From Asterochloris sp. CNOR1 (lineage: Eukaryota > Chlorophyta > Trebouxiophyceae > Trebouxiales > Trebouxiaceae): a stretch of 64,000 nucleotides of DNA. Below are positions 1-64,000 of this stretch, one piece after another; the first letter of the stretch is position 1, and each line of letters opens with the position of its first letter. The DNA is taken from NCBI GenBank assembly GCA_963969365.1, contig OZ017751.1, forward strand, positions 248,001 to 312,000. Reading direction: 5' to 3'. Under the pieces are notes generated by a model that did no database searches, was not told where the DNA came from, and was given only the letters and a program-made list of their open reading frames with translations. Both the position numbers and the translations under genes were made by a program.

Positions 1-302
1 TGCTGCACTCTCCTTGCCTGCATTTGCTCAGCATGTGCTGAACTCGGCAGCTGTGCCTGTATTTTTTCAGCAGGTGCTGTGCTGTCTCTTGGCTGCAACT
101 GTGAGCATGTGCTGACCGGTAACTCTGCCTGCGCTTTCCAGCCAGTGTTGTATTCCACACAACTCTGCCTGCGCTTGTCAGCGGGTGCTGCATCAGTCTT
201 ACTAAAAGCATCTGGGGTGTGCCTGGTTGCTGAGCATCAAGGGAGGCTGGAAGCCTTAGGGCTGCCCTGGCACGTGAATCCCTACTGCCCCCCCTGTTGC
301 AG
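1..302 (+). repeat. Intronic, degenerate copies of a splice-acceptor region
   Basis: No exon could be supported here. The stretch holds several diverged copies of a short unit combining a CAG/CCAG acceptor-like motif with GTGCTG or GTGTTG, for example near 70, 139 and 180. The two 30-base segments at about 119-148 and 160-190 are close copies, 41 bases apart. They resemble the acceptor and first bases of the kinase exon that begins at 303, so the region is best read as the intron upstream of that exon, filled with decayed copies of its edge. Confidence 0.45.
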
Positions 303-1134
303 GTGTTGAGGCATAAGTGGGTGAAGAACGGGCCCCTCTGGCAGGAGTCTCTGGCGCTTGACCCCTTTGTTATGCGGGTGCACCCAGTGACAGGCAAGAG
401 ACAATAGCGGCCTTCTGTCCCTTGATGGCTTGGCTGCCACTGCGTCTGTACAACTCACAGCATTCCCCTTTGTAGTTTTGGGAGACACTCTACGACAAGC
501 CAGAAAAGACAATGGCTTTGACCTGCATTGCTGGGATGCCACCATTTTGTAAAATCTCGAACAGCTCCCTTTTGATGGGGGTGCACCTTGTCACATGAGA
601 GTACCCACTGCACGTGGTGACAAGCGCTCTGTTGTGTGCGTTCAAGTCGTGAGCTGGCCTGGCACTGCATCTGGACAACATCTTGAAGCATTCTCGACAC
701 CGTCCTGTCTCAGTTGAGCTGTAGTGCATGGCCTGTTGTTCACACAACCCTTGGTGTCTGCTACAGGTGGCCTGCAGGCTGATGAGCAGGTCGTGCAGGC
801 CCTAGAGCAGCAGGGCGCCCTGCGAGACCGAATTTTGCAGGACCTGGTGCATAACCAGGTCAACAGCCTGACAGCCAGCTATTTCCTTCTGCAACAGGCA
901 TACACTGCCCAGCGCCTAGCTGAAATGCAGAACGGACTGGCTTATAGTGGCCGGAGCAGCATCACCCGCTCACAGTCGGCCAGTGCTGCTCAGCACATGG
1001 CAGCCATGCAGCATGTGGGACTCAGCCAGTCAATAGCAGCCCACCAGCAGCAGCAGAATGAGGACTCCGCCCACACTCTGTGTGTGCACCAGCCCAAGCC
1101 CATGCCAGCCCTAGTCTACACAAGTCAGTTTTAG
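303..1134 (+). CDS. Ser/Thr kinase of the CAMK/AMPK-related type, C-terminal part only
   Basis: Two exons are proposed. The exon at 303-377 (25 codons, phase 0) encodes VLRHKWVKNGPLW, which looks like the last helix of a kinase domain (the H-x-W motif of SnRK, MARK and BRSK kinases). The exon at 778-1134 encodes a segment with RDRILQDL and NSLTASYFLL, typical of the UBA-like domain that follows the kinase domain in AMPK-related kinases. A glutamine-rich tail follows and a TAG stop ends the frame. The kinase catalytic domain lies left of the window, so substrate and exact subfamily cannot be read. The gene is tail-to-tail with SLD5, 194 bases apart. The UBA identification is from memory of family sequences; that both exons belong to one gene is inferred. 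Confidence 0.55.
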
Positions 1135-1328
1135 GAGGACCTGGACGAAAGCTCCACGTGCTTCAGTTTGATCATGCAAAATTGCATTTCATAAATGGTG
1201 TGTGATGTCATTAGGCTGGGGTCACTCTGGTGTCGAAGTCAAGCATTTTCCAGTCTGCTGCTGTCGTAACAGGTGAAAAGGATGGGCCAGAGGCTAACAC
1301 AGGAGCTGTACGACCGCTGGGCCTGACT

Positions 1329-3847
1329 TCAGATGAGCCTGACCCAGCGATCTTTGATCAGGTCCTGGATGGGCTTGTGGCGCACTACATACAGGTCGCC
1401 TTCCCTGAACTCTGCCGTCTCAAGCCTGCACCCCAGGCGCATGCAGCGCTGGATACGCAGCTGATGACTGCTTGATGGGCTTCTCTGGCCTACCAGGGGA
1501 CCCCACCACGCGTAATGTGAATGGCAGCAACCCCGCAGGTGCACACTTTCCATGCAGAGCATGCACACCACAGGGGCCCGTTGTGAGGCCCATCACATTG
1601 TCGGGCTCCAGAAGCGCTTTGCCTATAGGTCATGTGCCCTCTATACAGGCTCTGCAGGTGGGAACTGACAGTGTGTGAAGCATAGGGCTGCAGGCCCCTC
1701 ACCCGTCATCGGTCAGCTCTACAGTGCCCCTGTCGCTCAGCACCAGGCAGAAGACGTGGGCGTCTAGATCAGGCTTGTCCACCATATCTCGCTCCCCACC
1801 CATCAGGCTCTGCTTGGTCAGATCCTGGTACCCCTGCAGCCCCTTGGGAGGAGTTAGATCTGGGGTTTGGTGCGCCTCACGCCAACAGTGCTTTGGATTT
1901 TGGAACACAACGCGAAAAGCTTGCAGCGAGGCTTGCTCTGCCTGAGGCAATGAGCTGCAAACAACTAACATGCATGGATCCAGTATGCAAGTACAACAAC
2001 ATTTCCAGAGCTGAGCTCTGCCTCACGTCGGGGAGACGGTTCAAAACGTTCTCCTTCTGATGCCGCCCAAAGTTGAGGAACTGCTGCTTCGCATATGCCA
2101 GCTCCTGTAGCCAGGGGACACTGATCGTAAACATCATGGATGGGATGTATCACCAAAGAATCAGCCTCAAAGACTGTTCCCATTAGCATTGTATGGTTAT
2201 CTCCAAGACCTAGTCCAGAATTAGCAGCAGACTACACGGCCCTCTTAGAGCAAGCCCAGAAGCGGCCTCTAGCCAGGCCACACTCTGAGAGCAAGGCGAT
2301 GACGCAAGCCATGCCTTCCTCCTTGAGTTGTGCTGGGACCCACCTGAGGTGACAGCCGAGTGTGGACCTCCGGCTCATCCAGAATCCACATGACATGCTT
2401 CTCTATCTTCTGCAGCCGCGTGCGTTGGTACCAGCGCAGCAAGCACTTGACGCGGGTGAGGGCATACTGGCCCATGACTCTGTTCACTTCCATCTCCTGC
2501 TGCTGCTGGTGCAGCGCGATCTGGTCTTCCTGCACCAGAGCAGGCAGAGCTGTCGGCAGCAGCGCTCAGCAGCCGGTTAGGGCAAACTCATACCACTGAA
2601 TGTGCATGCAAAGTCACCCCCCTGCAGCATGGCAGCAGAGCTCTGCATTGGGATCAATGGGTCTGGTGGGAGCATGATAGGGTCAGCTCAGCTCCTGCTG
2701 CAGTGGTGCAGGCCAGTGCAGCTCTCCTGCAGCGGAGCAGGTAGGCCTGTAAGCAGCAGTACGGCGGCGGCATCGCAGGACCAGCTCAGCTCTTGCTGCA
2801 GCTTGCGCAGCGCAATGTGGCCCTCCTGCAGCATGACAGGCAGGCCTGTGAGTAGCAGCATCCCATTGACAGTGGTTCTGAGACAGCCAGGTTTTGAGCC
2901 CCTCCGGCATTCCTGACAGAGCGAGTTGGAGCCCTGCAGCACAACAGGGAGGGCTCTAAGCGGCAGCATTTGGCCCGGAGGATGAGCGGGCACTGAAGCA
3001 TGCTCGATGTGTAATGGTGCCTGCTGCTGGCAGGCAGCTCTCAAGACTGCGCCAGGGCTGAGTTGCTCCTGCTGCTGGGCGTCCTCCTGCAGCTGGGGAG
3101 GCACAGCTCTCAGTAGTGGCATGACCAAACACAGTCAGCTGCGGGCTGTGCTGCTGCTGCTGGTATGCAGCTTGGCAGTCCTCTTCTGCAGCAGGTACGC
3201 GCCGCCTGAAGAGGAGGACTGCCATGTTGCAAACAGCAGCACAGGCTGCCCGTGCATCCCAGTCCAGGCATGAGCTGCGGGGGTGTGCATGCGTGACAAA
3301 GTGAGCAGCACCACCGCGAACTGTCATTGGCTGCAGTCATTGAGCTCATAAGTGAGCAAGGGCTGCAAAAACTGAATGACTGGTTATGTATGCTCAGTGA
3401 AGCAGTTGTGCACCAGCTGAGCTCGCTGAAGCGGCCGTGCACATGCTTCTCCAATTTGCTCATGCCAGCCGCCAGCGAGTTGGGACTTGCCTGTGCTCTG
3501 ATCTGCTCCACAATCATTGGTATGAGGTCTGAAGCATAGTGCAGGATATCTGGGGCGCACTTCTCGTTCTGCCATGCCTGCAGCACTGCAGACAACACTG
3601 CTGAGCTGATTTAAGAGCCCATGTATGCTCTGCTGGCTGTCACCTGAAGCGTAAGATGCACATCGGACCTGACAGTAGGCCGCCAGGCCTCACCCCGCAC
3701 CTGCTTTAGCAGTGTGACATTGCTGTCGTAGGCCACATGCTCCTCAGCAGGGGTGTAGTCCAGCGGCAGTTGGCTATCGAACTGTGATTCGCTTCCAGGG
3801 AACACAGGCTCGCCAGCTGACACGCGGTCCTCTTCGGCATCTGCCAT
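1329..3847 (-). CDS. SLD5: DNA replication complex GINS subunit SLD5
   Basis: Six exons in phase: 3701-3847, 3491-3577, 2344-2529, 2027-2104, 1703-1833 and 1329-1467, giving 255 residues. SLD5 is one of four GINS subunits; GINS joins MCM2-7 and CDC45 to form the replicative CMG helicase in the nucleus. Recognisable family blocks in order are LLKQAWQNEKCAPDIL near residue 45, the long alpha-helical middle with LQKIEKH, then KPDLDAHVF, and the C-terminal B-domain block GDLYVVRH ending in WVRLI. The start is the first ATG in frame and gives an acidic N-terminus before the first conserved helix. Intron 2 uses a GC donor (GCAAGT) and is long. The gene is head-to-head with VPS52. The frame is clean throughout. 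The family assignment is firm; exact boundaries are inferred from splice sites. Confidence 0.92.
2530..3490 (-). repeat. CTG/CAG-rich imperfect repeat filling SLD5 intron 2
   Basis: This 961-base intron is dominated by short imperfect repeats built from CTGCAG, CTGCTG and CAGCAG, on both strands, in units of roughly 60-75 bases. Many units carry an acceptor-like CTGCAG next to a CATGGCAG or CATGACAG motif, resembling the acceptor and start of the flanking exons (2529 downward and 3577 downward). No conserved protein segment was found in any frame. The long open frames on either strand come from the lack of A/T-rich stops in the repeat. Confidence 0.6.
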
Positions 3848-4070
3848 GCTGATGAAGTGCTGGGACTGGTGCTGTTGCCCTTGATGGCAATTATGCAGGC
3901 ACGATCTGCTGCATTCATGTCAATGGCTGATAGTGGGCAATGAGGGCGGGACCCATGGCGGTGGGGGGAGCAGTGCTTGACCGACTTGCTTGACCGGGCC
4001 CTGGATCCCTAGGGGGAGGAGCAGGATCCCAGAACCACTGCTGCTGCCCTCTGAGACAAGAAAATCAACC
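3848..4070. promoter_or_regulatory. Shared upstream region of SLD5 and VPS52
   Basis: The 223 bases between the two divergent ATG codons must hold both 5' UTRs and both core promoters. No clear TATA box is visible. The region is inferred to be a bidirectional promoter from gene orientation only. Confidence 0.4.
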
Positions 4071-7000
4071 ATGACAGCAGTCGTGGAAGGAATGTCGCCT
4101 GCACTGCAAAGTTTTCTGCAGGCTGATGCAAAGGCCACTGCACAGGCACCCCAGGTGAGGCTTGAGAGAACTGATAGTGCAGACCTGCAAGGAGGGCTCC
4201 ACAGCGTTGGAGGTAGCATGCAAGCTGCTCAGTCCAAGTGTGCATGATAGCAATCTCTGCCTTGCAGTATCCTGCATGCAGCACACAGAACGTACCACGC
4301 CTGCATGAATTCATGGTTGCCTCTCCTTCTCAGACAAGCTACATGTGCTGCAGCAGCAGCTGGAGACAGAGGGGGACCTCAAACTGGGCGAGCTGGACAT
4401 CACGACCTCCACACTGAGCCTGGCTGGCATCGAGAACCAGATTGAGCAGTTTGCGGACCACGATGTGCTCAAGGCCATTTTGGATCAGGGCTGTGATGCG
4501 AAGGAGTATGGGCGCCAGTATGAGGGCAAACTGCGCCAGGCAGAGCTGGAGTCCATACAGGACTACATCACTGAGAGCGACAACTTGGCGGTGCTGCATG
4601 AGCAGGTGTGCTGCTTTTGGCTGGCAGTTTTGTGCCCTGTGAGAGGGGGCAGTGGCTCTGACCTGCTTGGGCGAGCATGCCTTCCCAGGCGCCAATCAAC
4701 CTGCGTTCTCGGCGCCCAGGACAAGCAACTGAACAGGCGCAGGTGACCTGTGCTAAGGCAGCAGTGCTATTTTGTGTGAGCAGGGGCGCCAGGACATCAG
4801 CAGCTGTCAAAGCATCCAGATTGAAGGCCATATAGGGCGCCTCAGCAGCTGGTGACCTTGAATTCTGGCGTCCAGAAACTCAAGTCTACTGCCTGATGAT
4901 CAGCGATGACAACAACATCTAGGTATACCGCTGTGCCTACATAGCCGCCAAAGCTAGATCTCGAGCCCGGATGTGCACGCCTGCAGATCAGCAGATTGTG
5001 GCGACCAAACAGGACATGCTGGGCTTCAGCAGCTGAGGGGATCTGTAGTATTACTCCCCAGGCTCATGTCTGCAGATCAGCAGAGGTCCCAGACATGGCA
5101 GAGCTTGTCTGTGCTGTGCCCTGCAGATCAGCAGCTGCGACCACATCCTGGCGACCATGGAGGACATGCTGGGCAAGTTCCAGGCGGACCTGGGGAACAT
5201 TAGCACAGAGATTCGCGCCCTGCAGGAGCAGTCGCAGAGCATGAGCGTGAAGCTCAAGAACCGCAAGGGCACGGAGCAGAAGCTGGGGCAGTTCATTGAC
5301 AGCATTGCCATTCCAGGTAAGCAGGGGTTTCTGGGCTGAGCTCGGCATGTTTCCTACTCAGGGGTGGCCAGACTCAACACAAGTACCAGCTTCAGCTTAT
5401 GAGAAACTTTCAAGGACTAAGAGTGTGTCGCTGGGGCCGGGCTTTGGACAGCATCATTATCTGTGTAAGCAAGGTCTTCGGGACTGTGCTGGTGGGGGTG
5501 CCCGAACAGAAGGGCATGATGAGCTGATCAGGTGCTATGCCCCTGCTGCTGCAGCAGGCACCTTTCTTTTGTTGCCAGGACTGCAGCGCTGCAATGTGCT
5601 GCATATGTGAACTCTATCTTTCTCATGCCTGCAGGGCCGCTGGTTGAGGGGATCATGCAGAGTGAGATTGATGACAGCTTCCAGGAGCAGCTGCTGGCTC
5701 TGCACCGGAAGCTGAACTTTCTGGAGAAGAACGAGGCTGCCCAGTTTTCAGCAGCTTACAGGTCTGCCAGCGCCGGTCCTGTTGTCAGCAGTCTATGTTC
5801 TGCCCCACCTTGCTGCACTGGCCTGGCACACAAAGTGACTTTCCTGAAGCAAACATGGCGGCCCAGTCCTCAACAGACCGCAGCACGTCCAACAGCTCAG
5901 CGTCCAGCAAGGCCTGAGCTCGCAACTTTTCCCCTTTTGAAAGATTCAGGGGAGGTTAACCCTCCAATTGCAGCAGATAAGCAGCGCGTCAATCGCTCTG
6001 CTCATCGCAGGCTCGTTTCTGCCTGTCCCATCACTGGAGGCTTGTGGCCCTTGAACTTGACCAGCTGCAAATCACCTCAGCACACAAGACAATGCAGCGC
6101 TCCTGTTTGAGGAGCAGTTGCACAATTATGCCTGTGTCATGGCCGTGGGCACACGGCCCTAAAGCTGAGAAGCTGCTGGTGAGGGGAAGGGTCAAGGTTG
6201 AGCACTGCCACATGCAGCATTTGTCAACACTGCCATATGAACACTGCCACATGCAGCATTTGTCAACACTGCCATACTCTTGCACTGCAAGGACATGGCC
6301 TATAAGCTGGAGATGCTGTGGCAATGATGGCAGTGGCCAAGGTTGGCCACTGCCTCATGCAGCGTTTGTTCACCAATCTGATTTTGCATTGCAGGGATGA
6401 TGCCCTCGAGCTAATAGCTGCGGAGTTGAGGGAAGTGGCCAGGGCTAAAGATCATCTCGTGCAGCATCGGTTCACGAGCCCGACGCTGCACTGCAGGGAC
6501 GTGGCCCCTGAGCTGGAGAAGCTGCGGGTAAGGGCGGTGGGCAAGGCGCGAGACTGCCTCATGCAGCGCATCTACTCCCTGCGCAAGCCCAAGACCAACA
6601 TCCAGATCCTCCAGCAGAACGTGCTGCTCAAGTGCAAGTACCTGGTGACCTTCCTGCGCCTGCACGGGCGCGAGGTGTTCACAGAGGTCAGAGCGGCGTA
6701 CGTGGATACCCTGTCGCGGGTGCTGTCGTCCCACTTCCGGGCGTACCTGGCGGCCATCGACCGCCTCAAGGTGGGCCGTGGTGCACGCTGTTCGTGCATG
6801 TTGTCAGGGCATATCTGGCGGCCATCGACTGCCTCAGGCTCATACATCGCAGAAATTGCGGGCATCAACTGCCTCGGGCTGATGCATTGCAGGGTGTGCG
6901 GCCATTGACTGCATCAGGCCGATATTTTGCAAGGAGTGCAGAAGCCCATGTTACTCAAGGTGTGCAAAGGCATAGGGTGTTCAGAGGTCTGGGTAGTGTG

Positions 7001-10000
7001 TGTGCACACTTTGTCTTTGGCGCTATTCTTACCCAATCCAGGCGTACTTGGCGCTCACTAACTGCCTCAAGTTGCGAGGTCGCCTGATGGCCCTGCAGGA
7101 GGAGACTGCATCGCAGTCAGATGTGGTAGGCCAGGCAGATGCCCCAGCTGCCTCTGGCGTGATGTCCTTGTTCCAGAGGGCAACGGCCTCATCCCAGGAC
7201 CGGGCCGATGTCTTTGCGCTTGGCGACCGGGCAGCCCTGCTGCACCACCTTGACCAGGCCGCCATCATCCCCCACGTGGCGGACTCTGAGGGGCGTAAGT
7301 ACCCCTTCGAGGTGAGGTTTGGTCTGCACCAGGGCGCTGAGATGCTGCAAGGTGTGCCAGTCCTGCCTGGTATAGATTCCGTCGAAGCGGCTGATGGCAG
7401 CAACAGCGTCTTAGCTAGGGCCAGAGCTTCCTGAAATTCAATGTTACGAGGTCAGAGGGGCACAGGTGCCAGTAAGAGGATGTGCATGAGATCAATGTTT
7501 TTGGAAGATTCTTGAGAGCTCTGTTTGTGGGCAGTGCAGAGCATTTGAAAGGGGCTGGGCAGGATCTGTGCAGTGGTGGAGGGGTGGGAAGGACTCGTGA
7601 AAGGGTGTGCAGCCGCTTTGAAAGGGGTAGAAACATTTGTTTGCCGCCTTCTTTCGCCCGCATGCGATGCCTGATGCGTCGCAGAGCGACAAATTGAAGT
7701 GCTCAGGGTTATGCGCACCTTTGGGATCAGCTTTCATCTGCAGGCCTGAAATGCCACTGTTCAAAGGCAGGTGCTTGCTGCTGCCAAAGTGCCAACAAGC
7801 GGCGAGGAACACTTCTCAATCCTGTATGCAACAGCATGATGCCCCAAGGCTACTGCCTGCTGCATGCAGATACTGTTCCGCAGCGCCAACAAGCTGCTGA
7901 TGGACACAGCCACCTCTGAATTCCTGTTCTGCGCCGACTTCTTCTCTGAGAGCGCCATATTTCATGAGCTCTTCTCAGCCACCCTCAACGCTGTGGAGAC
8001 TGCCCTGGCCACCAGTCTTCAGGTATATATGCCTAATCTGTGGCTGGTCTTAGTAGCCTGTCCGTGGCGGGCGCCTATGCAGGGACAGTGCTCTTGTCCG
8101 TGGCACCCATGCAGCTGCCTGTTGCAATGCCTGCCTGTAGAGGCAGGGCTGTAGAGGCAGCACCGTCTGTGACAAAGAGCATCTCGGCACTGCAGCCTTG
8201 TTACCACCCATTCTGGACTTGTGGCACGCTGGCAGCCGCTGAGCCCTATGGTCCACCCGCAGCAGCACTGCCAGGCACTCAAAATGGCAGCTGCTGTGGC
8301 TGGCTTGCAGGGAACATGCAAGGTTGTCTGCATGCTGTTGGCGACCCGCACCCTTGCTTGTGGCAGCACTGGCTTGCAGGCAAACCCAGCAGCTGTTGTG
8401 GCTTGTATGCAGGAAACATGGGACATTGTGTGCGTGCTGCTGATGATTCGCATCACCCATCACCACCAGCTGGTGATGAACAAGCGGCGCATCCCCTGCC
8501 TTGATGACTATTTTGACCGGGTTAACCTCATGCTGTGGCCACGCTTCAAGGTGCCAGTGTTGCTGGGCTGCCTGCGTCATCCTCATGCTATGCTCGCGCT
8601 TCAGATTGGCTTGCTGCTGAACTGTTGCGCGCTTGCTGCTTTGTGCCTGAGTGCTTGCTGCAGTGGTCAAGTAGGGTGCTGCTGAGTATCACAGGACACG
8701 TGCTGCCTTTTTTAATGCAGCTGTTGTATAGGTCCTGCACGCTCTTGGGGGGTGGTGGCCCCATCTTGCCACCACAGAGGCGGCCACTGTTGGACAGGCT
8801 TGTGCGGCCACTCAGTGCAGCTGGTGCGAATATGGCTGGGTGCAGACCCCATCTGGCATTCAACTGGCTGCATCCTGCCCCCTAAGGTGGTCGCTGGCAG
8901 CGAAGAGGTGAGCTAGTTCACATCCTAACCTAGCTGCCATGCAGGCGCTGTTTGACATCCAGCTGGCCAGCATCAAGCACTACAGCGTGGCCAGCTTCTC
9001 AGAGGACTCCAAGATGCACTTCATCACCTACAGATACGCACAGCTGACTGCCTCCCTGCTTCAGCTCAACACAGACTACCAGGTGGGCACACCTGCCTCA
9101 GCGTTCGCTGTGCAGGAAGGCTGTGCCCTGAAGGAAGCCTGACTGGCTGAGCAGCAGCCCTGTTTGGGGCAGTGCTTGACTTTGCGCTAGGGCACACTGT
9201 AGCAAGACATGCTGGGCTGCCAGCTGCTGCATTGCAGGAGATCCCGCTTGGATCCCATCACGTCATACCCGCATCACAATCACGAGTGACAAGAGCATGC
9301 TTTGTTGGAAGGAACCCATGCTGTGCAGGCAGCTGCTGCCGTACGGGCTGAGTTTTGCAGGCAGACCTCGTGTGCAGGACTTTCAGGCAGGCACCTGCGA
9401 TCAGCAGAGCTCCCTCTGCCTACCAGCAATACGGCAGCAGGTGCTGAGCTGCATTGCTGGTGTTAAGCAGCCACTTGCCGCCGTGCAGGAGGGGCAGCTG
9501 GACCACAACATCGACAGGATGCGCTACACCATGATGGACCTGCTCACCCGCCTGGGCAAAGCGTTCCGCAGCCGCCGCGCCAGCACAGTGTTCAGCATCA
9601 ACAACTTTAACCACGTCGTCACTGTGAGTCTCACCCACTGCAGCTGCCTCCAAGTCACTAATGTAGTTAGTGTGAGACAGCGATGCGTGCCAAGTCCATG
9701 ACTTCAGCACTTGGGTCTGGTGCGGCCCACTTCTCACATGATTCAGCATCATTTTGGGGTGGGTCTTGGCCCTCCCTGAGATGGCACTGCGTTGAAAGTC
9801 CTTATCAACCAAATCTTGTGGCACTGCTACCTCAGGCAACACCCTCTGGGTATGTCATCAACTGGTTGGCGCCTGAGGCAATCAATCGCATACCTGCTGT
9901 CATGAACGTGGCATCCTGCAAACTGCACCTGTGGTCAGTGCACAGTCTGCAGCTGAGGATGCTGCAGCTCGCCTATCGCACCATTATTGCCTGCGGCTGG

Positions 10001-11996: not shown

Positions 11997-12900
11997 GTGC
12001 CTGTTGCAACCTCCAGCTAGCTGCACGCATGCTCCCCCTCCTCGCAGTGAACAGTTGAAAGAGTGTGTGAGTGATGCTTGCCATCCTTAGGTCATGCTGG
12101 AAGACCCTGGCACTGGCCATGTCTCATTTGACCAGAAAGGGCTTGACCAACACAGCTGTGGATCTTGCTGTTACAAACAAATGCAGGGTGAGCGGAATAT
12201 GGGACGTCTTCGAGCGGGCCCGAAACCAGGTAAATGCACGAAATTCATGAATCCTGCTCGAGGGTCCACGAATGTGGGAACCCTGGATATGGCCGGATCA
12301 ATCAGAACCAGGGGAATAACGCCTATCCCAGCGAGTAAGAGAGGGCGCCTGGCACCAGGCATCTGCCCAGCATGCCTCTGCCTCTGCCCACAGGCGATCT
12401 GGGGAGCCGGGGCAACCAGGATGTCATCAACAGGCATTCCCAAGACTTTCAAGAGCTTAAGAAAGCGGCAGTGGAGAGGCTGTGCGGCCTGGACAGCCTG
12501 AGGAGGAGGAGAACAGCCTATCTCCCTGCAGCGGGTGGGTATGCCATGGCGCCTCAGCGAAATGTGGCTGAAGTGCATCTGATGCTTAGTAGACTGCGCA
12601 GACCTGCTGGTCAGGCTGGTGGCTGCTGATGCTGTGCATCTCAGGCCTGCTTGGCAGGATGGTGGTTGCTGATGCCGTGCATCTTCATCAGCAGGATTCA
12701 CAACAGTCTATTGCAGATCACATGCTCCTCCCCTGATCTTTCTCCCCTGAGTGCAGGCAAGGATCAAGATGCAGAGGAGGGCCTCCGCGAGATTGATCTG
12801 TACAAAGTGAGTCTCACCCTGCAGTTGATGCCAGGACATACAGGATGTCTAGTAGCGCAGCAGCTGCTCCTGGCTTGAGGTTCATGCCTTTGTGAGCAAC

Positions 12901-12944
12901 CAGGGAGCCTATGTTGCCATGCCAGGGAGCCTATGTCGCCATGC
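12901..12944 (+). repeat. 22-base tandem duplication just before an ABCG exon
   Basis: The bases at 12901-12922 recur at 12923-12944 with one T/C difference. The unit begins CAGGGAGCCTATG. It ends six bases before the acceptor of the exon at 12951. Confidence 0.9.
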
Positions 12945-13858: not shown

Positions 13859-13937
13859 TGCTGCATGTTTGCCCGCAGAGCTGACATTCGGGGCTGCCAT
13901 CCTGGCTTCCAGCGAGCTGCTCGCTGCATGTTTGCAG
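13859..13937 (+). repeat. Duplicated acceptor region before the ABCG Walker A exon
   Basis: The segment from 13859 (GCTGCATGTTTGCCCGCAGAG) is a diverged copy of the segment from 13922, which is the true branch and acceptor region leading into the Walker A exon at 13938. The offset is about 63 bases. The copy continues into sequence resembling the start of the exon. Confidence 0.65.
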
Positions 13938-23436: not shown

Positions 23437-23850
23437 ACCTGTAGATTGAGTTGACCACCTCAGTGCCTGTGTAGCTGTGCTGGGTCGGCCTGCAATCTGG
23501 GACTTGTGCTTGCACTGTTGGTGAGATTGGGTCGATGATTGCCGATGTGCCGCTCTGCAGGTTGAGCCCTACAAGACTATGCATGCCTTTTTGGATACTG
23601 GCCATGCTGGGCCCACATTGCAGTTTGAGACGTCACCATTGATGCCTTTGAATGTGGGTCAATGGTGTGGTGGCAGCTCTGCTGCCTTGCAGATTGGGCG
23701 TGCCACCAGTAGGTCCTGTGTGTATCGGGACACCATCTCTCAAATATGCTGTGCTGTGTTATGAATTCAGCGCAGCGTTGTGAAGCTAGAGGCCGATCAG
23801 CAGCTCGTATGGCTGTGCTCCTTCTTAGACACCATAGGTCCTCCTTTCAG
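23437..23850 (+). repeat. Ladder of copies of an ABCG NBD2 exon start
   Basis: The exon at 23851 begins GTTGAGCGCCACACCATCGA. Diverged copies of the acceptor and first bases occur near 23437, 23557, 23617 and 23691. The copy at 23557 keeps CTGCAGGTTGAGCC and ATGCCTTTTTGGAT; the copy at 23617 keeps TTGCAGTTTGAG and ACCATTGATGCCTTTG. The frames are not kept, so these are intronic remnants, not alternative exons of the family. Confidence 0.75.
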
Positions 23851-54600: not shown

Positions 54601-57600
54601 GGACCAAATGATGAGCACAATGCCATGATGAGCTGCAAATCTCACCGAGATGGGGGCTTGCAAGTGCATCACACAAGCTCCACTGTACATCTTGGTGAGA
54701 CTTGCACTGCTGGGGCTTGGGGCTTGGCAGGCCGTGATGTTTGCTCTCAACAGACCAAGTGGATGTGGCCCCCTTTCCCCTCCAAGCGCGATGCACACTT
54801 GGAAAAAGGGAAAGCACTTGCTTCTGCTATGCACAAGCAGTGAGCAAGTGTTACCTGGACACTAATGCGTTCGTGCAGACCTTTTGCATGCAGACCTTGG
54901 TAGAAAAGCATACACTGCTGGGGCTGGGCAGGCCGCGCAACACACTGCCAACAGAGTGAGCTGACGCTGCTACATACCTACGGGCTCCTGTGTCATCAAC
55001 ACCTGCTGCAAGCAGAGGAGCTCGTTGCCTGCAACCTGGGTGCCTGGCCCGCTTCTGCAAACACAGGAGGAGCACGCAGCATACCTGGTGGCCCCAAGTG
55101 CTGCTCCACTCCTTCTGTGCTATAGACCTGCCCTGGTGCAGGCAGAAGAGCTTGATGCCCGCATCCTGGGGGCCATCATTGCAGGGGTGCGCCGCGCCTT
55201 CCCCTTTGTGGCCGGGGACGACGTGGAGCCCCTGGTGCAGAGGCACTCGGATGCCCTCTTCCGTATGGTGCACACGGCCTCCTTTGGGGTGGCCGTGCAG
55301 GCTCTGCTGCTGCTCTTCCAGCTCATGTCGGCCCAGAACTCCGTCAGCGACCGCTTCTACAGGTGGGTGGAGGTGACATCGCTGCGAGAACAGCGGAGTA
55401 ATAAATTTGTCACCCACAGGACACGTGCCCGTTGGTCTAGCTGGCCATTGCACCGCTCCTGAGGGACTCCCCTGATTTTGCTGCTGGTGAGCTGTCTTGG
55501 CTCCTGCAGCCACGTCCAATGGCAAGTACCTGCCTGCTGCCTTATGTGTTTGTCTGCCAACCATGTGCTCCCACCTGCACACCCCCCGTCTTGCTGCCGC
55601 CTCTTGCAACTGAGGTCCTGGCTGCCGCTGTCTGCCTTCAAACTCTGTCCTGCTGTTGCGGAACGCAAGAAGCCACCCAAAGGCTTGGTTGCTTGTCTGC
55701 TGCTGCAGATCTGTCCATTGCTGCAGGAAGCTAACTGAGTCCCCAGAAGTGGCGTGCAGCAACAGGGCCCCCAAGTTCCTGATTACCTGCTGCTGCGTGC
55801 ATGCAAAGGCCTGTCTGTACCTGCAGGGCGCTGTATGAGACGCTGTTGTCTCCAGAGGTGGCGCGCAGCAACAAGGCGCCCATGTTTCTGTCCCTACTGT
55901 TCAAGGCAATGCAGGCAGATGTCAGCTCCCGCCGCAAGGCAGCCTTTGCCAAGAGGCTGCTGCAGGTGTCTCTGGAGCAGACTCCCGCCTTTGCCTGCGG
56001 GTGCCTGCTCATCCTATCAGAGCTGCTCAAGGTGGGCTGCCCATCTGCCTGCCTTTGCCTTGCAGAGCCTTCCACCTCGTCAGAGGTGTAGAGCTGCTGA
56101 AGAAGAGCTGCACATGTTCCGTCCTCTGCCAAGTGTGTTTTCAATCTGTTCAGAGCTGCTCAGGGTGGGATGCCCACCTTCCTGTCCATCTCTGTGGGCG
56201 CCTGCCTATTCTGTTGGAGCTTCTCAATGTGTCTTTCAGGTTTTGTGGCCCTGCCCGGTGCCTGTGCATCCTGTCAACACAGTCTGCAGGGGTTTGCCTG
56301 TTCATCTGGCACTTTGGTTCAGGCAGCCTTACTCTTCAGGTCTGCTGGTGCCCTGTTCCCCTGCATATGCGGGCAGGGTCAAGAAGGAAGCATCATCGTG
56401 GTGCAGTTGCAGCTTGAGATACTGCTGGCACACTTTGGGAATCCTCCTTCGTGCAAAGTCACTTTTTGGTGCAGAGCTGTGACCTTGTCGCTGTGCAGGC
56501 GCAGCCCTCCCTGTGGAGCGCAGTCCAGGAGGCAGAGGAGGCCTCTGATGAGCTGGAACACTTTGAGGACCAGCCAGAGCCCCAGGAGCCCGGCATGGTG
56601 TCAAATACAGTCACTGGTGGCGAAGGACCCACTCAGAAGGAGGCTGCAGCTCTGCCTGCAGCAGGAGCTGGTGGGGGCAAATCTGAGACTCTGCAGGAGC
56701 GCAGCCCTGATGGAACAGGGGCCAGACCTGTGCAGGCGACGGGGTACGACATGCGCAAAAGGTGAGATCTGAAGTGGTCAATGTGGTCTGTGGGTGACAG
56801 TGGCATGTGCGTGTGACCGTCGTTGTGCTCGTTCTGGGGGGAGGGCCACTGCTGGTTACTCAGCGGGCGCAGAGGCCCTCCAGGGAGGCCTGCAACCTGA
56901 GGTCTTGCCAGAAGCTGGCTGCAAGACTGCCCACGAAGACACAATCTGCTCTGCTGACAAAATTGCGCCTGCTTTGGGGTGCAGCTGCAGCCATCCACCC
57001 AGAGACATTGCTGAGCTGTTTGTCTGCATGTGTGCTGGTGCTGTGGGATACCTACAATCATCTTGGTTGCCTGGCCACTACATGCACCCTTTCATTCATC
57101 CTAAGCAGCATTGCCTGCCAGGTGCCTACACAACCAGTGAGCTCCCTTTATGCAGGGAGCCCCTGTACGCTGGCGCAGAGAAGAGTGCCTGGTGGGAGCT
57201 GTGCTGCCTGGCCCAGCACATGCACCCCAGCTGCAGCGCCATGGCGTGCCAGCTGCTGGCGGGAACCCACACTGACTACGCTGGGGACCCGCTGCGGGAC
57301 CACAGCCTGGTCGCCTTCCTGGACAAGTTTGTGACCCGCAAGCCCAAGGTGGGGGGGCACGGTTCATGCCATTTCATGGCATTGCAAACGGCAGCAGCAA
57401 CTCGCTGATCTCCCTCAGAACATTGTCTGAGATGGTGAAGGAGGCTCTGCCTTGGGTTTCTTGTTGGGGAGGTGCCTTGATCGCAGCCCGCACCTTCCCG
57501 TGTTGCCCTCTATGGTTTATGCAGGTGGCTGTCTTGAGCAAGTTTGCAAGTACAATGTAAGGCTTGTGTGGTTCAAGCTTGCCTGTGAAGGCTGGCCTGC

Positions 57601-60600
57601 CATGCACCTGATTTTCCGCCCAGCTCCAGCTCGGCTTCAAGCCTTGCTGGCACTACATGTGACTGCAAAGCAGCAGATCTGCGCCTGCAGGCATGCCAAG
57701 CACCTGAGGCTCTACTCGGCTCCAGATGTGCTTCGAGCTCTGCTGGGGAGACGAACTGCATGTCACTGCCCCACTTTATGCTCAAATTGAGCTCCACAGC
57801 TGCCCCTGCAGGCTCAGCAGCGCGGAGCGTCGCTCATGCAGCCCGCAGCAGGCAGGAACGCTCAGCAGCAGCCCTCCGCTGCAGCCGTGGGAAGTTCTGC
57901 CTTCACTGCCCTGGCTGAGCAGGACGTGCTGCCAGACGCACGCTTCTTCCACAAGTATTACAGGTGTGGCTGCTGCTTTAAAGCACCATTGTGGCCCGCT
58001 GCGAAGCCAGGGGTCTTTGCAGCCGTCTCAAGACATGGACATCATTCTAGCTGCATGTTGTCCGCATATCCCTATCTGCTACAAGCACAGCTGCCTAATT
58101 TACCTGCTGAATCTGCAGCAGAAGGGGGTGTGGATCATCAATTGCATCTGGATGTGTCCCTTGAATCCACTGCTGCCCAACCTCACCCTGCTGCAACTTG
58201 CCGTAACATGGCCACAGCATTGACCATGGGCGTCTCACGCCAAAATCCTTGGCAGCTGCGCCTGCCTAGAATGGCTGCAGTGTCAAACACTCGATGCCTG
58301 GGTATGCAGCCCTGTGTGCAAAGGCAGCAGCCCACTGCCTTTACAGATGTTGAGCGCCTTGCAGACCCTTCTAGGGCAATCCTCAAGGTGCAGCTGCCAC
58401 CTGGCTCGCAAGGGCATGCCTGCAGTGGGAGATGTATGTACACATGTGTGGACTCTTAGCTGCCTGTCACGTGCCCACTGCATGTTGCTGTGCTGCAGTG
58501 TGGCTGCTGAGCGGCACCAGGGCAAGCCCGCGCGCAAGCGCAAGCGGGATGAGGACACCGCGGAGGATGACGCTGCCAGCTCTGATGAGGAGGCGGAGAT
58601 TGGTGAGGGCTCTGATCAGTTGTGGGCTGCAGCAATCTCCTTGCAAACTGAATTTGAGGCAGCAAGTTGATGCATTCCCATCATGAGGAGTGTCATTTGT
58701 TCTGGGCCAGAGTGGCAGGCTGCAGCGCACAGAGTTGGTGAGACAGGCAGGTGCCACAGGCAGCAGCAAGCCTAAAGGTATTGCTTGCTGAGCTGGATGG
58801 TGCCAATCTTGCCCTGTGAGGCGGTAAAGCTGCTCTCAGGCGAGGCGAGGATGCTGTGGAGATCGATGCTGCCAGCTTTGTTGGGAGAAGGCAGAGGCTG
58901 TTGAGCTGGTCAATACGGTGACAACTTCAACACTACACCACAAGTATAGCAGTGCTGATCGTTGCAAGCTGACCTCACATGTGAACCTTGCGCAGATGAT
59001 GTCCTGGAGGGAGAGGAGGAGGAAGAAGCTCGAGGGGGCCAGGGCTACAGCTACGATGATCTGGCAGCTGCCATGGGCGGTGATGAGGAACTGCTGGATG
59101 ATGGGGGCCCCAACGAGGATGCTGAAGGTCAGTGCATGGGAGGTGTGTCATGGCTGATGGTGGTGCCTTACTGCAGCTCTCAGGGGCCATGGGCGGGACT
59201 GTGGACATGTTGGACAGCGAAGTGGGGAGGACGGGCGAGGTGGCGTCTTGACTGCGCTGAAACATGGGTCTGGCTGATGTTGAGGCCTGCTGCTGGACCT
59301 TCAATCTGGTGGCCAATCAAGACTTGCATCACTGTCATGGGTGCAGACAATGGCAGTGACATCACGAGCTGGGCTTGTGAGGGGAATAGGTGTGCTGACC
59401 ATTAGTGGGTGGACTTCAAGGTGGAAGATGACACTGCATCTGCAGACTGTTGAGGGCCTGCACTCACGCAAAACCCTGAGCAACCCTGGTCCCCCCACTG
59501 CTGCGAGAAGCTGGTGCTGCTGCTTAGCATGTGTTGTGCAGGCCCTGATGTTGTGCAGGCCAAGAAATGTCAATGTTGCTGCAGGAGTCTGTGGTGAGCG
59601 GCAGGCCATACATCTTGATTGTGTGCACAGTCCTTAGGCGTGTGTTCTGTGTGTCTCATAGGGTCAGATGTTGAACCGGAGGCTGCTGTCGCCATGGCAC
59701 TGGGCCAAGACAGCGATGAATTTTCCGTGGAGGATGATTCCGAGGAGGACTCTGAGGCTTCCAGCAATGCAGGTTCGCTGCTGCATCATTGCGGGGTGCA
59801 CAGCAGCTGTGCATTTGACCTGGCCTGCTGGGTTGCTGATTCCTGGCTGCAAGGGGGCGGCGAGAGGCTCCAATTGGAATTCTCTGAATGCATGTCTTCA
59901 ATTCTGTATGGTGTGAGGCTGGGGGGGGCTGCAGCAAGAGCACGGTGTCTCGCCTACTTCTGCCGAGGCTTTCCCATTGTGTGGCGCCCTGTAGCAGTAC
60001 AGGCTCTTTGAGATCTTACCTACTCTGGCGGCCCCTTCCTCTGCCCTCATGCACAGTGGACTGGCTTCTAGTGTCACGCAGCTGTGCAAGCCGCTCGAGT
60101 TTCCAGTCACGTTGGGGGGGGCTTGCCATATGCCAATGTGAGGCACCATGCAGAGATTCGTGAGATTTTCCTGGTGTGGAGCTCTCTCACAATGTTCCAG
60201 GACCTGACGACAGCGACAGTGAGGCTGACCTGAACCCTCTGGACCTTGCCCCTGCCACAGACTCTGATAAGGGAGACGGTGAGACCAGCTGCTCTGTGTA
60301 TCACTGCCATGTGTCGCAACATCAGATGGTGTCCTTTCTGCAGCCTGGCACAGTGTGTACTTGAGTCCCTTTGTGTCAATTTTGCAATGTCACCAGGCTG
60401 AGTGGGCTGTTTGGTCCCTGCAAGGACATCCTGCAGAGCTTGCTTTTGACCATGCTCCTGGCTCCTGCAGTGGATGAGCATGGACTACCAGTGATTCATG
60501 TTGAGAGTGATGACAGCGAGTCAGGTGAGGAGGGCTGGGTCATGTACCAGGGCCCAAGCCAGCAGCCTACTTCAGTGCCCAAGCGCAGAAAGGCTCAGAG

Positions 60601-60784: not shown

Positions 60785-60985
60785 CAAGTGCCGCTGTTGC
60801 AGTGCTGATGTTTTACATATATCAAAAGTGCAATGTCTGCCGTTCAGGGCATTGATTCATGTTCATGTGGCCTGCTGCGGCCATCAAGGTTAATGCATTA
60901 CATCAATTCTCACAACAACATGACAGAAGTAATAGTGGGGACCCTGCACAGGAAAGGGGGAGTTGGGCCTGCACAACATGGCAGA
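60785..60985. other. Intergenic between convergent NOC1 and codanin-like genes
   Basis: This 201-base gap holds two 3' UTRs. No gene is visible. Confidence 0.5.
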
Positions 60986-63960
60986 TTATTCGACTTCGGC
61001 GTTTTGCCTGTTTTCACTGGTGGCTTTCATCTGTTTAAGCTGCTTTTTGTGGGTTGTTAAGGCAGCCTGCACCTGTGCCCGCATCATGTCTTTGACTTTG
61101 ACTGGGGTCTGCACCATGAGCTGCTGTGCAGACAGACTGGTTGCTACTTCTGCAGCCATTGCAGCTGCTGTGGCCACCACGGCAGGCGGCCAAGAGGGAC
61201 TTGCAAGTCCGAAGATCACGTAGGCTGCTCTCGAAGTAACGTGCTGACGCGCCGCCTCATGACACTGAAGCATGGCCTGCAAAGCAGACCCCGCAGGGGT
61301 TGCCAGGAAATTGGATGCAGGCTGGGGTTCACTACAATGCTTGGTGACTGTCAAGAGCCTCACAGGTGAGTACATATAGCGTCAGCATCACACCCTCAGC
61401 AGACAGGCAGCCAGCAAGGAGGGCACTCAAGCTGCTGCACCCCCAGTCAACCCCATTTGCACCGTGACGGGGAAGCCACAGCGGCAAGACCTAACATTCA
61501 GCAGGCTATGCCAGCAGAGACACTACAAGAACCAATGTGAGCACTGGCGACTCTGTGGGCCTAGCACAGCCACAGCAGCAAGCAACACTCAGCAGCATGT
61601 CACCTCCGGCAGGCACCTGCCAGCAGCAGCACTGCCAGCTCGGTCGAAGTCTGCCTGGCCTGCCGAGGTCTTGGAGCCCTTAGCAGCGCCCAAGACCGGT
61701 CCCAGCTCCTTCTCAAGGGCTGTCTTGACGCAGGACTCCAATGCCTGTGACCAGCTGGCCACACAGGCGTTGTTTGCCAGCACGCCAGTCGCGAAGTCTA
61801 GGATCTCCTTCAGCCGCACCTGCACAGGTTCAAGGCACCAAATGAATGTCACTCCCTGCAGTCAGCAAGCAGCACCCAATTTGACCCTTGCTCCTCACCT
61901 GCTGCCCACCAGGGCTGCACCCCTCAAGCACCCACACAGCTCAGTGCTTCCGCGCCGCATGCATTGCAGCCCCGCAAAGCCACATGTGCCCTGCCTAACT
62001 GCGCCTGCAGTCACCCCGCTTACCCAGAAAGCAGCCCCGCAGGCTCCTCACCTGCCCAGCAGGGCTGTACCTCTCCAGGAAGGCGCCCTGTAGCTTGAGC
62101 TTGACTGCGTCCTGGCAGCCCCGAGCCGCTTGCTGCAGGCTCTCTGGCACCGGTGCTGCCGCAGGAACATCCTGGAGGGCTGACGCGCCAGCCGGGTTGA
62201 TGCGCCGAGCAGGCCGCGGTGCCTGTTCCCTGGTGCCTTGCACGGCCTGCAGGCACATGTGGCATGGCTCGTGCTGCTGAGCGCCTGCAGTCTGCGCCAG
62301 AAGGTTTTGCTAATGGACCAGATCTGGGGGTGCCCCACGGTGTGGCCGGCTTTCCGTCCTGCAAACTCTGGCAACAAGCTCCAGCTGTGGGCAGCACAGC
62401 CGCGCGAACGCTCACACCGAGCACACACCACACGCTGAGGCAGTCACATCCGCGACAGGCATAGACCAGCCAGCTGACCTGCAGAGTCTGGCGGGCAAGC
62501 TCCAGCCCCGGGCAGCACAGCCGTGCATAGCGGGCATCCACCTCCGGCAGCTGGTCCCATTGCAAGCGAGTCAACTGCTGTTGCCAGGCGGACCCGTCCC
62601 CATCAGACTCGGCCCCCAGATGTGTGACGGGGCAGCGCTGGAAGTGAGCGTCCAGCACGCAGCGCAGGCACAGCAGGGGGTGCGCAAAGGCTGCACTGCG
62701 TGGGCGCAGATGGTCCAATTGCTGCAGGGCCAGCAGGCGACGTTGCAGGCGGCGCATACCCGGGGATGCCCAGGCGGTAGGGTCCCAGGGAAGAAAGCAA
62801 AGGTACCGCAGCAGCCAGGGCAGGGCCCAGCACAGGTGGGCTGGGGATACGACGGCTGCGGCCAGGTGGGCTTCTGCATCCACCAGGGGGATGAAGACGT
62901 CGCTGGTGTCACTGGGACCTGCAGACAGCAGGCGATCACATTGGCTGGTGGCACTTCACCGCAAAGCAGAGTCATCCAGGTTGCTTGCAGGCAACTACAT
63001 GGTGGCCCTACAGCGGGCACAAGTGGCACACAAAGATGTTGCTGATTTTGCTAGCATCTGCAGACAGTAGGTGAACGCATTGGCTTGTTGCAGTTCACAG
63101 CGAGGCAGAGCCGTTCACATTGCTGGGCCAGGCGTGCAGGGAGCAGGCAACTGGGTGTTGACCCTGTTGCGCCTACCAGTGGCACACTGCTGTTACTGGT
63201 GTTGCTGGGACCTGCAAACAGCAGGCAACCGCGTAGGCCTGTTCAAAAGTTCTGCAGTGCAGAGCTATGCACACTGCTCGCCAGGGCCTGCAGGGAGCAT
63301 GTCAGTGGATGTCGGCCCCGCTATGTTCAACAGTGGCACACAGGTGTGGCTGATAGGGCTTACAGGCAGCAGGCAATGGGTAATGGAAACATTCGATCTT
63401 CATCCAAGGTGCCACTGCCAGCTTGCAGGGCGGCTCAACTGCCAGGCATATCGATCAAACCAGATGGCAGGATATTCCAGTGAGCATCTCTGGGAGCCCG
63501 CGTGGTGCCCGCTGTGACCGTTCAAAGCTGTGGTGGCCACCACGTGCACCTGTGGAGGTGCCTACTGATGAGATGCTCAGAGGAACAGCATCGTAGGAAA
63601 TGCACAACGGTGCAGGCAACTGAGCAGACTGGTTTGCTTCAGTTGCACACCCAGCACCCACAAGACTGCCTGAGTGGTGCAGACGCATGACGGCGAAACA
63701 GAGCAAGAAGGCAGTGACCTGAAGAGCCACTTCAGACAGTGATGCCAAGACTGCAAGAGTGGTGCCGTCCTCTCAGCATTCACTGCGTCCATTCACAACA
63801 ACGGCAATTCGATTCACCTGGGGAGCCACTTGTGAAGTTGAGGTAGCTCAAGAAGGTGGCCAGGGTGCATATCGCCGTCAAGCGCTCGCTGCGTGTGGCT
63901 GGGCTGCTGCTGCCGCTGGCGCCCTGGCCAGCTAGGCTGCTCAGTCTGGACAGCATGTGC
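60986..63960 (-). CDS. CDAN1: Codanin-1-like protein, 5' part beyond the window
   Basis: Exons recognised: 63818-63960, 62479-62918, 62052-62246, 61604-61819 and 60986-61276, joined in phase; the gene continues past the right edge. Animal codanin-1 binds the histone chaperone ASF1 and controls its nuclear import, and is mutated in congenital dyserythropoietic anaemia type I. Similar blocks in order: LTAICTLATFLSYLNF, the hydrophobic stretch LCWALPWLLRYLCFLPW, VDARYARLCCPGLELAR (animal VDQQLLYTCCPYIGELR), LKEILDFATGVLANN (animal LRRTVEFVAERIGSN), and the Ala-rich C-terminal helix region. The stop is TAA. Similarity to the animal protein is moderate, so the call is by order of motifs. The first exon in view starts with a split Arg codon. 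Confidence 0.7.
62919..63817 (-). repeat. Degenerate acceptor copies in a codanin-like intron
   Basis: The exon at 62918 starts on the minus strand with CAGGTCCCAGTGACACCAGC. Related segments occur in the upstream intron near 63030-63060, 63175-63215, 63280-63300 and 63330-63350, for example CAGGTCCCAGCAACACCAGT followed by a GTGTGCCACTG block. No protein-coding segment of the family was found between the two flanking exons. Confidence 0.6.
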
Positions 63961-64000
63961 CTGCAGGGGACCAGCACAGCAGCTTCAGCAGGCCCAGCAG

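What the first reader, a model, noticed from the sequence alone, without database searches (positions are those of the whole stretch)
1..64000. Introns filled with decayed tandem copies of neighbouring exon edges
In at least seven genes on both strands the introns contain ladders of partial copies of the adjacent exon start or end together with its splice site, spaced about 50-200 bp. Examples: VPS52 (6040-6496, 6741-7071, 8305, 10038-10466), ABCG (13859, 23437-23850), lipase (36506-36899), ABHD18 (46331, 46741), NOC1 (50697, 51632-52220, 54371, 55733), codanin-like (62919-63817). The copies differ in age and do not keep frame. Intron gain by tandem duplication of an AGGT-containing exon segment has been proposed before. 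A genome where serial junction duplication appears to be the main source of intron length would be new to me. Unlike introner elements, each ladder is private to its own junction.
Basis: partly seen in the sequence, partly recalled or inferred. Interest (0 to 1): 0.88.

Follow-up and report, generated by a model that had tools for sequence, protein, structure and literature searches.

The report
Tandem duplications lengthen introns across splice junctions
In this stretch of nuclear DNA, probably from a green alga, short pieces of DNA have been copied side by side again and again, and where such a piece crosses an exon edge the spare copies end up inside the intron, leaving ladders of decaying copies of the exon edge and its splice site.

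Summary
With one unrelated repeat removed, strong direct self-matches 10-300 bp apart number 83 against 1 at 5 kb; inverted ones are not in excess. In my gene models (8 genes, 91 introns), 28 of 182 junctions have a copy in their own intron against 0.7 in length-matched foreign introns. The signal is gone 72 bp into the exon. Some ladders are regular: about 49-bp rungs in VPS52, three 140-165 bp units in codanin. Of the cited examples only 13859 is weak.

Intron-only duplications are also common (17 of 37 clusters by strongest pair). The junction share (54-62%) exceeds a uniform expectation of 30%, but much of that fits slower decay of exon copies. Visible copies cover 10.7% of intron sequence (17.9% by array span), so 'main source of intron length' is not shown. 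The intron-birth signature fits 1 of 91 introns. Best reading: serial small tandem duplication filtered by splicing; when a unit spans a splice site the outer copy stays in use and the inner copies become intron. Many acceptor-side copies keep plausible 3' splice sites, which RNA-seq could test.

The parts
10033..10500 (+). VPS52 acceptor ladder: nine decayed rungs about 49 bp apart, then the exon start itself (exon 10467-10583)
   Evidence: Spacings 49,49,50,50,40,48,38,49,46, taking 10 of the 12 TGCAG/TGCCAG sites there as rungs; alignment A1, mean column identity 64%; 5 of 9 rungs reach score 30 alone, best 84
6021..6568 (+). VPS52 acceptor ladder before exon 6497-6770, with a young 39-bp duplication at 6199-6276
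   Evidence: Lags 39,102,106,145,204,206,349,457; TRF 97% matches
6736..7074 (+). VPS52 exon-end copies in intron 6771-7071; the last copy abuts the 3' splice site (the one intron-gain-like case)
   Evidence: Lags 40,68,80,301; 23 of 30 end-anchored matches, none of 8190 off-diagonal pairs as good
8287..8452 (+). VPS52 acceptor copy, lag 102, before exon 8413-8550
   Evidence: Score 64, AG kept
4972..5174 (+). VPS52 acceptor copies before exon 5127-5316
   Evidence: Lags 89,140,150; score 42
5430..5489 (+). VPS52 donor copy of exon end 5316
   Evidence: Score 42, GT kept
8514..8624 (+). VPS52 donor copy of exon end 8550
   Evidence: Lag 55; score 37
10576..10745 (+). VPS52 duplications after exon end 10583, lags 64-65
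   Evidence: donor score 34 with 8 exon bp; classed intron-only
11162..11385 (+). VPS52 donor-side copy of exon end 11202, lag 202
   Evidence: 91% over 22 bp; score 36
2491..3194 (-). SLD5 acceptor ladder: up to six ~100-bp copies upstream of exon 2529-2344
   Evidence: Lags 98,99,197,296,404,557; 4 copies reach score 30; alignment A3 of hand-cut units, mean column identity 55%; exon aligns to GINS subunit 4
62875..63352 (-). Codanin-like acceptor ladder: three units of 139-166 bp covering intron end + exon start (exon 62918-62479)
   Evidence: Lags 139,154,156,293; alignment A2, mean column identity 77%
61890..62078 (-). Codanin-like donor copy, lag 150, GT kept
   Evidence: Score 47
62358..62526 (-). 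Codanin-like donor-side copy of exon end 62479, lag 121
   Evidence: Score 57
50512..50912 (+). NOC1 acceptor ladder before exon 50871-51052 (copies at 50512, 50575, 50686, 50755)
   Evidence: Lags 85,95,180; scores 31-58; exon edge aligns with Mak21
51633..52227 (+). NOC1 donor ladder: copies of exon end 51669 at 51828, 52097, 52181
   Evidence: Scores 39, 63, 41; exon edge aligns with Mak21
54371..54638 (+). NOC1 donor-side copies of exon 54323-54422
   Evidence: Lags 79,124,203; scores 49, 42
55002..55174 (+). NOC1 acceptor copy before exon 55142-55362, lag 130
   Evidence: Score 54
55739..55890 (+). NOC1 copy of exon start 55827, lag 109
   Evidence: 84% over 43 bp
55995..56308 (+). NOC1 donor copies of exon end 56031
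   Evidence: Lags 71,133,197; scores 34-54
58541..58905 (+). NOC1 donor-side copy of exon end 58602, lag 296
   Evidence: Score 41
36475..36899 (-). Lipase donor ladder after exon end 36851
   Evidence: Scores 94 and 53, GT kept in both copies
40795..40856 (-). Lipase acceptor copy before exon 40743-40558
   Evidence: Score 52, AG lost
46315..46529 (-). ABHD18 donor duplication spanning exon end 46482, lag 133
   Evidence: 82-bp match; score 68
46744..46851 (-). ABHD18 copy from exon 46969-46798 in the following intron, lag 72
   Evidence: 83% over 36 bp; donor score only 30
46945..47063 (-). ABHD18 acceptor copy before exon 46969-46798, lag 75
   Evidence: Score 44
23558..23732 (+). ABCG acceptor copies before exon 23851-23927
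   Evidence: Scores 43, 40, 32
15228..15336 (+). ABCG donor copy of exon end 15242, lag 80
   Evidence: Score 34
12599..12684 (.). Example of a tandem duplication away from my exons (unannotated), lag 43
   Evidence: 86%
49210..49385 (.). Example of an intron-only duplication, lag 94
   Evidence: 74% over 82 bp; class
25741..25959 (.). Example of an intron-only array, lags 71, 83, 154

Best explanation
Noncoding DNA in this genome has repeatedly gained small direct tandem duplications (unit estimate 22-296 bp, median about 94 bp), some repeated in series to form short arrays. The process is blind, or nearly blind, to gene structure. If the unit lies inside an exon it is removed by selection. 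If it lies inside an intron it is neutral. If it spans a splice junction the transcript holds two or more copies of the site; use of the outer one (first donor or last acceptor) keeps the protein unchanged, so the inner copies, exon fragment included, become intron and decay. The exon copy is held by purifying selection and acts as a preserved template that makes old copies recognisable, which is why ladders seem to belong to exon edges. Shown here: local direct repeats, some arrays with regular rungs, restriction to the junction's own intron, exon-to-intron polarity for NOC1 and SLD5, many duplications away from junctions, no exon-internal pairs. Inferred: the DNA-level mechanism (perhaps fill-in and end joining of staggered breaks), neutrality, and the splice choice.
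For: Direct but not inverted local repeats are in excess. Units align over intron part and exon part in codanin, less well in VPS52 and SLD5. 28 of 182 junctions have own-intron copies against 0.7 permuted; gradient from the exon edge. Of 44 clusters, 23 touch a junction, 14 are intron-only, 7 unannotated, 0 exon-exon; uniform placement of units would put 9.5% inside exons, and 0 of 37 has p = 0.025. Differences between exon and noncoding copies are 87 of 470, 101 of 468 and 123 of 473 at codon positions 1, 2, 3: neutral decay of the intron copy plus some silent change in the exon. NOC1 exon edges at 50871, 51669, 55142, 55827, 56031 align with Mak21, so there the exon is the source. Both sides are affected about equally (13 acceptor, 15 donor at >=34). 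Introns with copies are longer (median 467 against 308 bp, p = 0.001).
Against: Junction clusters (20 by strongest pair, 23 by any pair, of 37) exceed the 30% expected from uniform unit placement (p = 0.002 and 5e-5). If exon copies stay visible twice as long, an assumption, p is 0.21 and 0.04, so a junction preference is not excluded; a second placement model that moves finished pairs gives 15.8 +/- 2.9 against 20. Only 7 of 43 seeds cover a whole unit and extension of the other tested 35 beyond the seed is weak (p = 0.09), so some pairs may be dispersed local copies. Young copies are scarce (2 of 44 below 9% divergence), against a constant rate. Density differs strongly by gene (ABCG 5 clusters in 14.1 kb of intron, VPS52 10 in 5.6 kb). 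No RNA evidence was available.
Confidence: 0.76

Rival explanations
1. Junction-targeted duplication: something about splice junctions (transcription-linked breaks, the TGCAG motif at acceptors, R-loops) makes them hot spots, and serial junction duplication is the main source of intron length.
For: Junction share 54-62% of 37 clusters against 30% under uniform unit placement; introns with copies are longer.
Against: Slower decay of exon copies may explain much of the excess; intron-only and unannotated clusters are common; donor and acceptor sides are affected alike, against an acceptor-motif cause; coverage is 10.7-17.9% of intron bp.
Confidence: 0.16
2. Templated local insertions: copies of nearby sequence pasted in during break repair, not true tandem duplication.
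For: Most matched seeds are shorter than their lag and similarity beyond the seed is weak.
Against: Such insertions usually come in both orientations (recalled), but inverted local copies are not in excess; several arrays show multiples of one unit.
Confidence: 0.1
3. Classic intron gain by tandem duplication of an AGGT-bearing exon segment: the introns themselves were born this way.
For: VPS52 intron 6771-7071: the last exon-end copy abuts the 3' splice site; Vps52_C scores 97.7 bits with acceptor 7072, 96.5 with 7042, 90.1 with an intron-translation control.
Against: Intron 3' ends resemble upstream exon ends in 1 of 91 introns at p<=0.01, and intron 5' starts resemble downstream exon starts in 0 of 91.
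Confidence: 0.07
4. Reverse direction: intronic minisatellites expanded and exon edges were recruited from them.
For: Arrays look like decayed minisatellites.
Against: NOC1 and SLD5 exons that seed ladders align with known Mak21 and GINS subunit 4 chains, so these exon sequences are ancient.
Confidence: 0.03
5. Chance or composition: the window is rich in CTGCAG-like words.
For: CTGCAG occurs 229 times.
Against: Dinucleotide shuffles, foreign exons, foreign introns, distant lags and inverted matches all give background.
Confidence: 0.01

Closest known systems
[quoted passage not shown] potato RdRp case, PMC4974935, passages seen)
   Same: Tandem duplication, in potato of an intron-exon junction segment, supplies splice sites and new intron sequence; the same paper cites multiple tandem copies of a 24-bp exon segment in fission yeasts.
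   Different: There a new intron arises. Here existing introns mostly grow, with serial rounds and heavy decay; the birth signature fits 1 of 91 introns.
Novel Drosophila introns by tandem duplication of proto-splice sites (PMC2891723, passages seen)
   Same: Exonic duplication followed by intronization of one copy.
   Different: Those are new intron positions found by phylogeny; here intron lengthening found by copies.
Small tandem duplications at breaks with 3' overhangs (PMC8355091, abstract seen)
   Same: Short direct tandem copies.
   Different: Cell experiments with induced breaks; the mechanism here is only inferred, and the joints are inconclusive (0, 0, 1 and 7 extra matching bases in four two-copy cases).
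Introner elements (recalled)
   Same: A source of intron sequence.
   Different: Introners are one family spread over many loci; these copies are private to each junction within the window.
Decayed minisatellites (recalled)
   Same: Head-to-tail units of tens of bp.
   Different: The terminal unit is a constrained exon edge carrying the splice site in use.

Membership tests
Intron gain by AGGT tandem duplication | Intron 3' end is a copy of the upstream exon end | tested here: not met
   1 of 91 introns at p<=0.01, about the chance number; the one, VPS52 6771-7071, is itself beyond chance
Intron gain by AGGT tandem duplication | Intron 5' start is a copy of the downstream exon start | tested here: not met
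   0 of 91 at p<=0.01
Intron gain by AGGT tandem duplication | Intron absent from outgroups | not testable with these tools
   No genome held for the window; one viral-contig scan found no relative
Small tandem duplication | Copies in direct, not inverted, orientation and close by | tested here: met
   83 direct (27.5 kb repeat removed) against 1 inverted at 10-300 bp
Small tandem duplication | Copies adjoin, unit length equals lag | tested here: inconclusive
   7 of 43 seeds cover the unit; extension of 35 others p = 0.09; regular arrays in VPS52 and codanin
Small tandem duplication at staggered breaks | Little microhomology at the joint | tested here: inconclusive
   0, 0, 1 and 7 extra bases in four two-copy cases (6199, 12599, 12900, 45026)
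Introner elements | Same sequence in many introns at distant loci | tested here: not met
   2-4 segments per 1000 lags at 5-21 kb; 0.7 permuted junction hits of 182; only within 64 kb
Minisatellite | Copy number varies between individuals | not testable with these tools
   Single sequence only

The most novel reading that the evidence does not exclude
Serial tandem duplication is the main supplier of intron sequence throughout this lineage: introns without visible copies are made of older duplications decayed past recognition. Acceptor-side ladders are kept as reserves of working 3' splice sites while donor-side copies are purged, so introns grow at a tolerated cost in splicing noise.
Probability: 0.17. 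Interest if true: 0.8.

Novelty: new variant of a known kind. Interest (0 to 1): 0.55.

Why it matters
What sets intron length in green algae is open: a comparative Chlamydomonas genome paper finds conspicuously long introns, calls the advantage of keeping them long unknown and thinks whatever drives intron length is probably ancient (PMC8226300, passages seen). Visible copies of exon edges in 27-32 of 91 introns give a concrete, testable supply mechanism. Exon edges serve as preserved templates, so rate, unit size and decay of duplications can be measured inside a single genome. The ladders also make natural tests of how the spliceosome chooses among near-identical competing sites.

Tried and rejected
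Permissive gapped extension to test whether whole units match: uninformative, because control flanks aligned nearly as far (mean cover 0.90 own, 0.89 control); replaced by a stricter test. Tandem Repeats Finder gives 13 rows at score 50 and 61 at score 30; most ladders are too decayed for it. Composition as cause: rejected by shuffles and foreign introns. Templated insertion: no inverted excess. Intron birth as the general cause: rejected. Relatives: one viral-contig scan with a NOC1 exon found none; genome contigs, plasmids, phages and E. coli were not scanned, being prokaryote, plasmid and phage collections. Sense-strand skew as a correlate of gene differences: no clear pattern in 8 genes by eye (the TGCAG counts for minus-strand genes in that call are wrong because the strand was complemented but not reversed, and are not used). 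In making the gene models I dropped by hand some weak exons that the gene finder proposed, without a fixed rule. Literature searches (three of them returned nothing, several lists were cut) showed, by titles and abstract starts, no paper on junction ladders as a source of intron length; only open-licence PMC papers are covered.
Full report
What was checked. No genome for this window is held, so everything rests on 64 kb and on gene models made here. I seeded a small hidden Markov gene finder with 20 hand-read exons, self-trained it and curated 8 genes by hand: SLD5, VPS52, an ABCG-type transporter, a cupredoxin, a class 3 lipase, ABHD18, NOC1 and a codanin-like gene. Pfam supports SLD5, Vps52, ABHD18 and Lipase_3; the cupredoxin match is exactly at cut-off and Codanin-1_C is below it (23.2 against 27 bits). 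NOC1 aligns with MAK21 (chain 8e5t_5, yeast by recall) over query residues 175-668, SLD5 with GINS complex subunit 4 (2e9x_D, human by recall). VPS52 and codanin found no PDB relative. The ABCG name is from reading motifs and was not tested in a library. The models hold 91 introns, 38,611 bp, median 383 bp. Weak exons were dropped by hand and some ABCG exons may be missing. The organism is not identified: green alga is my inference from base composition, intron richness and recalled traits. Asterochloris, at 56-62% GC and 9 introns per gene (PMC6652019, passages), would fit, but so may others.

Is the pattern real? Yes. Self-matches at lags of 20-150 bp are 433-640 per 1000 lags against 2-4 at 5-21 kb. 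With the 27.5 kb repeat removed, direct matches at 10-300 bp are 83 against 1, and inverted ones 1 against 1. With junction queries and length-matched foreign introns, 28 of 182 own junctions score >=34 against a permuted mean of 0.7. Dinucleotide-shuffled introns give 0 where the real ones give 20 of 182. One cited example, 13859, is weak: it ranks first against foreign exon edges, but rests on 13-15 matching bases.

What it looks like. In VPS52 before exon 10467 there is a ladder with spacings of 49, 49, 50, 50, 40, 48, 38, 49 and 46 bp, if 10 of the 12 TGCAG or TGCCAG sites there are taken as rungs, the last being the exon itself (alignment with 64% mean column identity). Five of the nine intronic rungs reach score 30 on their own. 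In the codanin-like gene three units of 139-166 bp align over both intron part and exon start at 77% mean column identity. SLD5 has up to six copies about 100 bp apart; four reach score 30, and hand-cut units align at 55%. Donor-side ladders are seen in NOC1 (51633-52227, 55995-56308), the lipase (36475-36899) and ABHD18 (46315-46529). Acceptor and donor sides are affected alike, 13 and 15 junctions.

Direction. Five NOC1 exon edges beside copies (50871, 51669, 55142, 55827, 56031) align with MAK21, and the SLD5 exon at 2529 with GINS subunit 4, so there the exon is the source. Differences between exon and noncoding copies are 87 of 470, 101 of 468 and 123 of 473 at codon positions 1, 2 and 3 (p = 0.02), as expected if the intron copy drifts freely and the exon changes mainly at silent sites.

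Junction-specific or general? Of 44 clusters of local duplications, 23 involve a junction or exon part, 14 lie in introns, 7 in unannotated DNA and none has both copies in exons. By strongest pair the annotated split is 20 junction and 17 intron. Placing finished pairs at random gives 15.8 +/- 2.9 junction cases. Placing units before duplication predicts 61% intron-only, 26% junction, 9.5% inside exons and 3.6% whole exons; against that, 20 of 37 (p = 0.002) or 23 of 37 (p = 5e-5) is an excess. If exon copies stay recognisable twice as long, which I assume and did not measure, the expectation is 46% and the p values are 0.21 and 0.04. I conclude that a blind process filtered by selection may account for most or all of it, with a junction preference still possible. 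The absence of exon-internal cases (p = 0.025) fits the selective filter; very short repeats inside exons do exist (for example 15093-15110), and whole-exon copies were not classed apart.

How much intron length? Matched copies cover 4,114 of 38,611 intron bp (10.7%) and array spans 6,917 (17.9%). These are probably lower bounds, since the strongest pairs found reach only 33% divergence, but they do not show that duplication is the main source. Introns with copies are longer (467 against 308 bp); part of this may reflect the greater chance of hits in long introns.

Intron birth. The tandem-duplication birth model predicts that the intron's 3' end copies the upstream exon end. Only VPS52 intron 6771-7071 does so clearly. 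Its true acceptor is uncertain: 7042, which would add ten residues in frame and was the gene finder's choice, or 7072. Vps52_C scores slightly favour 7072 (97.7 against 96.5 bits).

Splice sites in the copies. At score >=34, of 24 acceptor-side copies with a mapped junction, 19 keep AG, 16 score within the range of genuine acceptors (at or above their 10th percentile) and 5 score at least as well as the site in use; of 20 donor-side copies, 9 keep GT and 6 score in range. The two sides differ (p = 0.03), though neither differs clearly from a neutral 0.59, my estimate from 77% identity (p = 0.06 and 0.26). At score >=30 the counts are 23 of 30 and 11 of 20, a smaller contrast. A base-by-base count gives AG 0.93 over 46 bases against 0.68-0.84 in nearby stretches, and GT 0.78, no different from its neighbours. 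Copies within a ladder are not independent, so this is a hint. It predicts alternative 3' splice site use.

Mechanism. Four two-copy cases whose seed covers the unit (6199, 12599, 12900, 45026) show 0, 0, 1 and 7 extra matching bases at the joint. The first three would fit end joining of filled-in staggered breaks as described for small tandem duplications (PMC8355091, abstract); the fourth has 2.3 copies by TRF. This is inference from few cases. Later rungs may come from slippage or unequal exchange once two copies exist.

Loose ends. Few pairs are young (2 of 44 below 9%): contraction of identical repeats, assembly collapse or an old burst could each explain it. ABCG is poor in all local duplications (5 of 38 clusters in 37% of the intron sequence, p = 0.002). 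Lags modulo 3 are uneven (18, 20, 5 for 0, 1, 2; p = 0.01), unexplained.

Novelty. Intron gain by tandem duplication is known, including a junction-spanning case in potato (PMC4974935) and multi-copy cases in fission yeast cited there. Serial, junction-spanning intron lengthening at this density was not found in the listings of ten searches of open papers. I file it as a new variant of a known kind.

Noticed in passing
27485-27776: G+C-rich imperfect repeat with 34-40 bp units in the ABCG intron after exon 27420-27477; left out of the cluster counts.
   Followed up: no
1-64000: CTGCAG occurs 229 times and TGCAG 487 times on the + strand, several-fold more than base composition suggests by my estimate.
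   Followed up: partly
6771-7071: VPS52 intron with exon-end copies along it and a copy abutting its 3' end; acceptor 7042 or 7072 is uncertain.
   Followed up: partly
12757-30225: The ABCG gene has far fewer local duplications than most of its neighbours.
   Followed up: partly
24 acceptor and 20 donor copies listed: Acceptor-side copies keep AG (19 of 24) more often than donor-side copies keep GT (9 of 20); at a lower threshold 23 of 30 and 11 of 20.
   Followed up: partly
31334-32266: Single long open frame that reads like an F-box and leucine-rich-repeat protein (by eye only).
   Followed up: no
3847-4071: SLD5 (minus) and VPS52 (plus) lie head to head with start codons about 220 bp apart in my models.
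   Followed up: no
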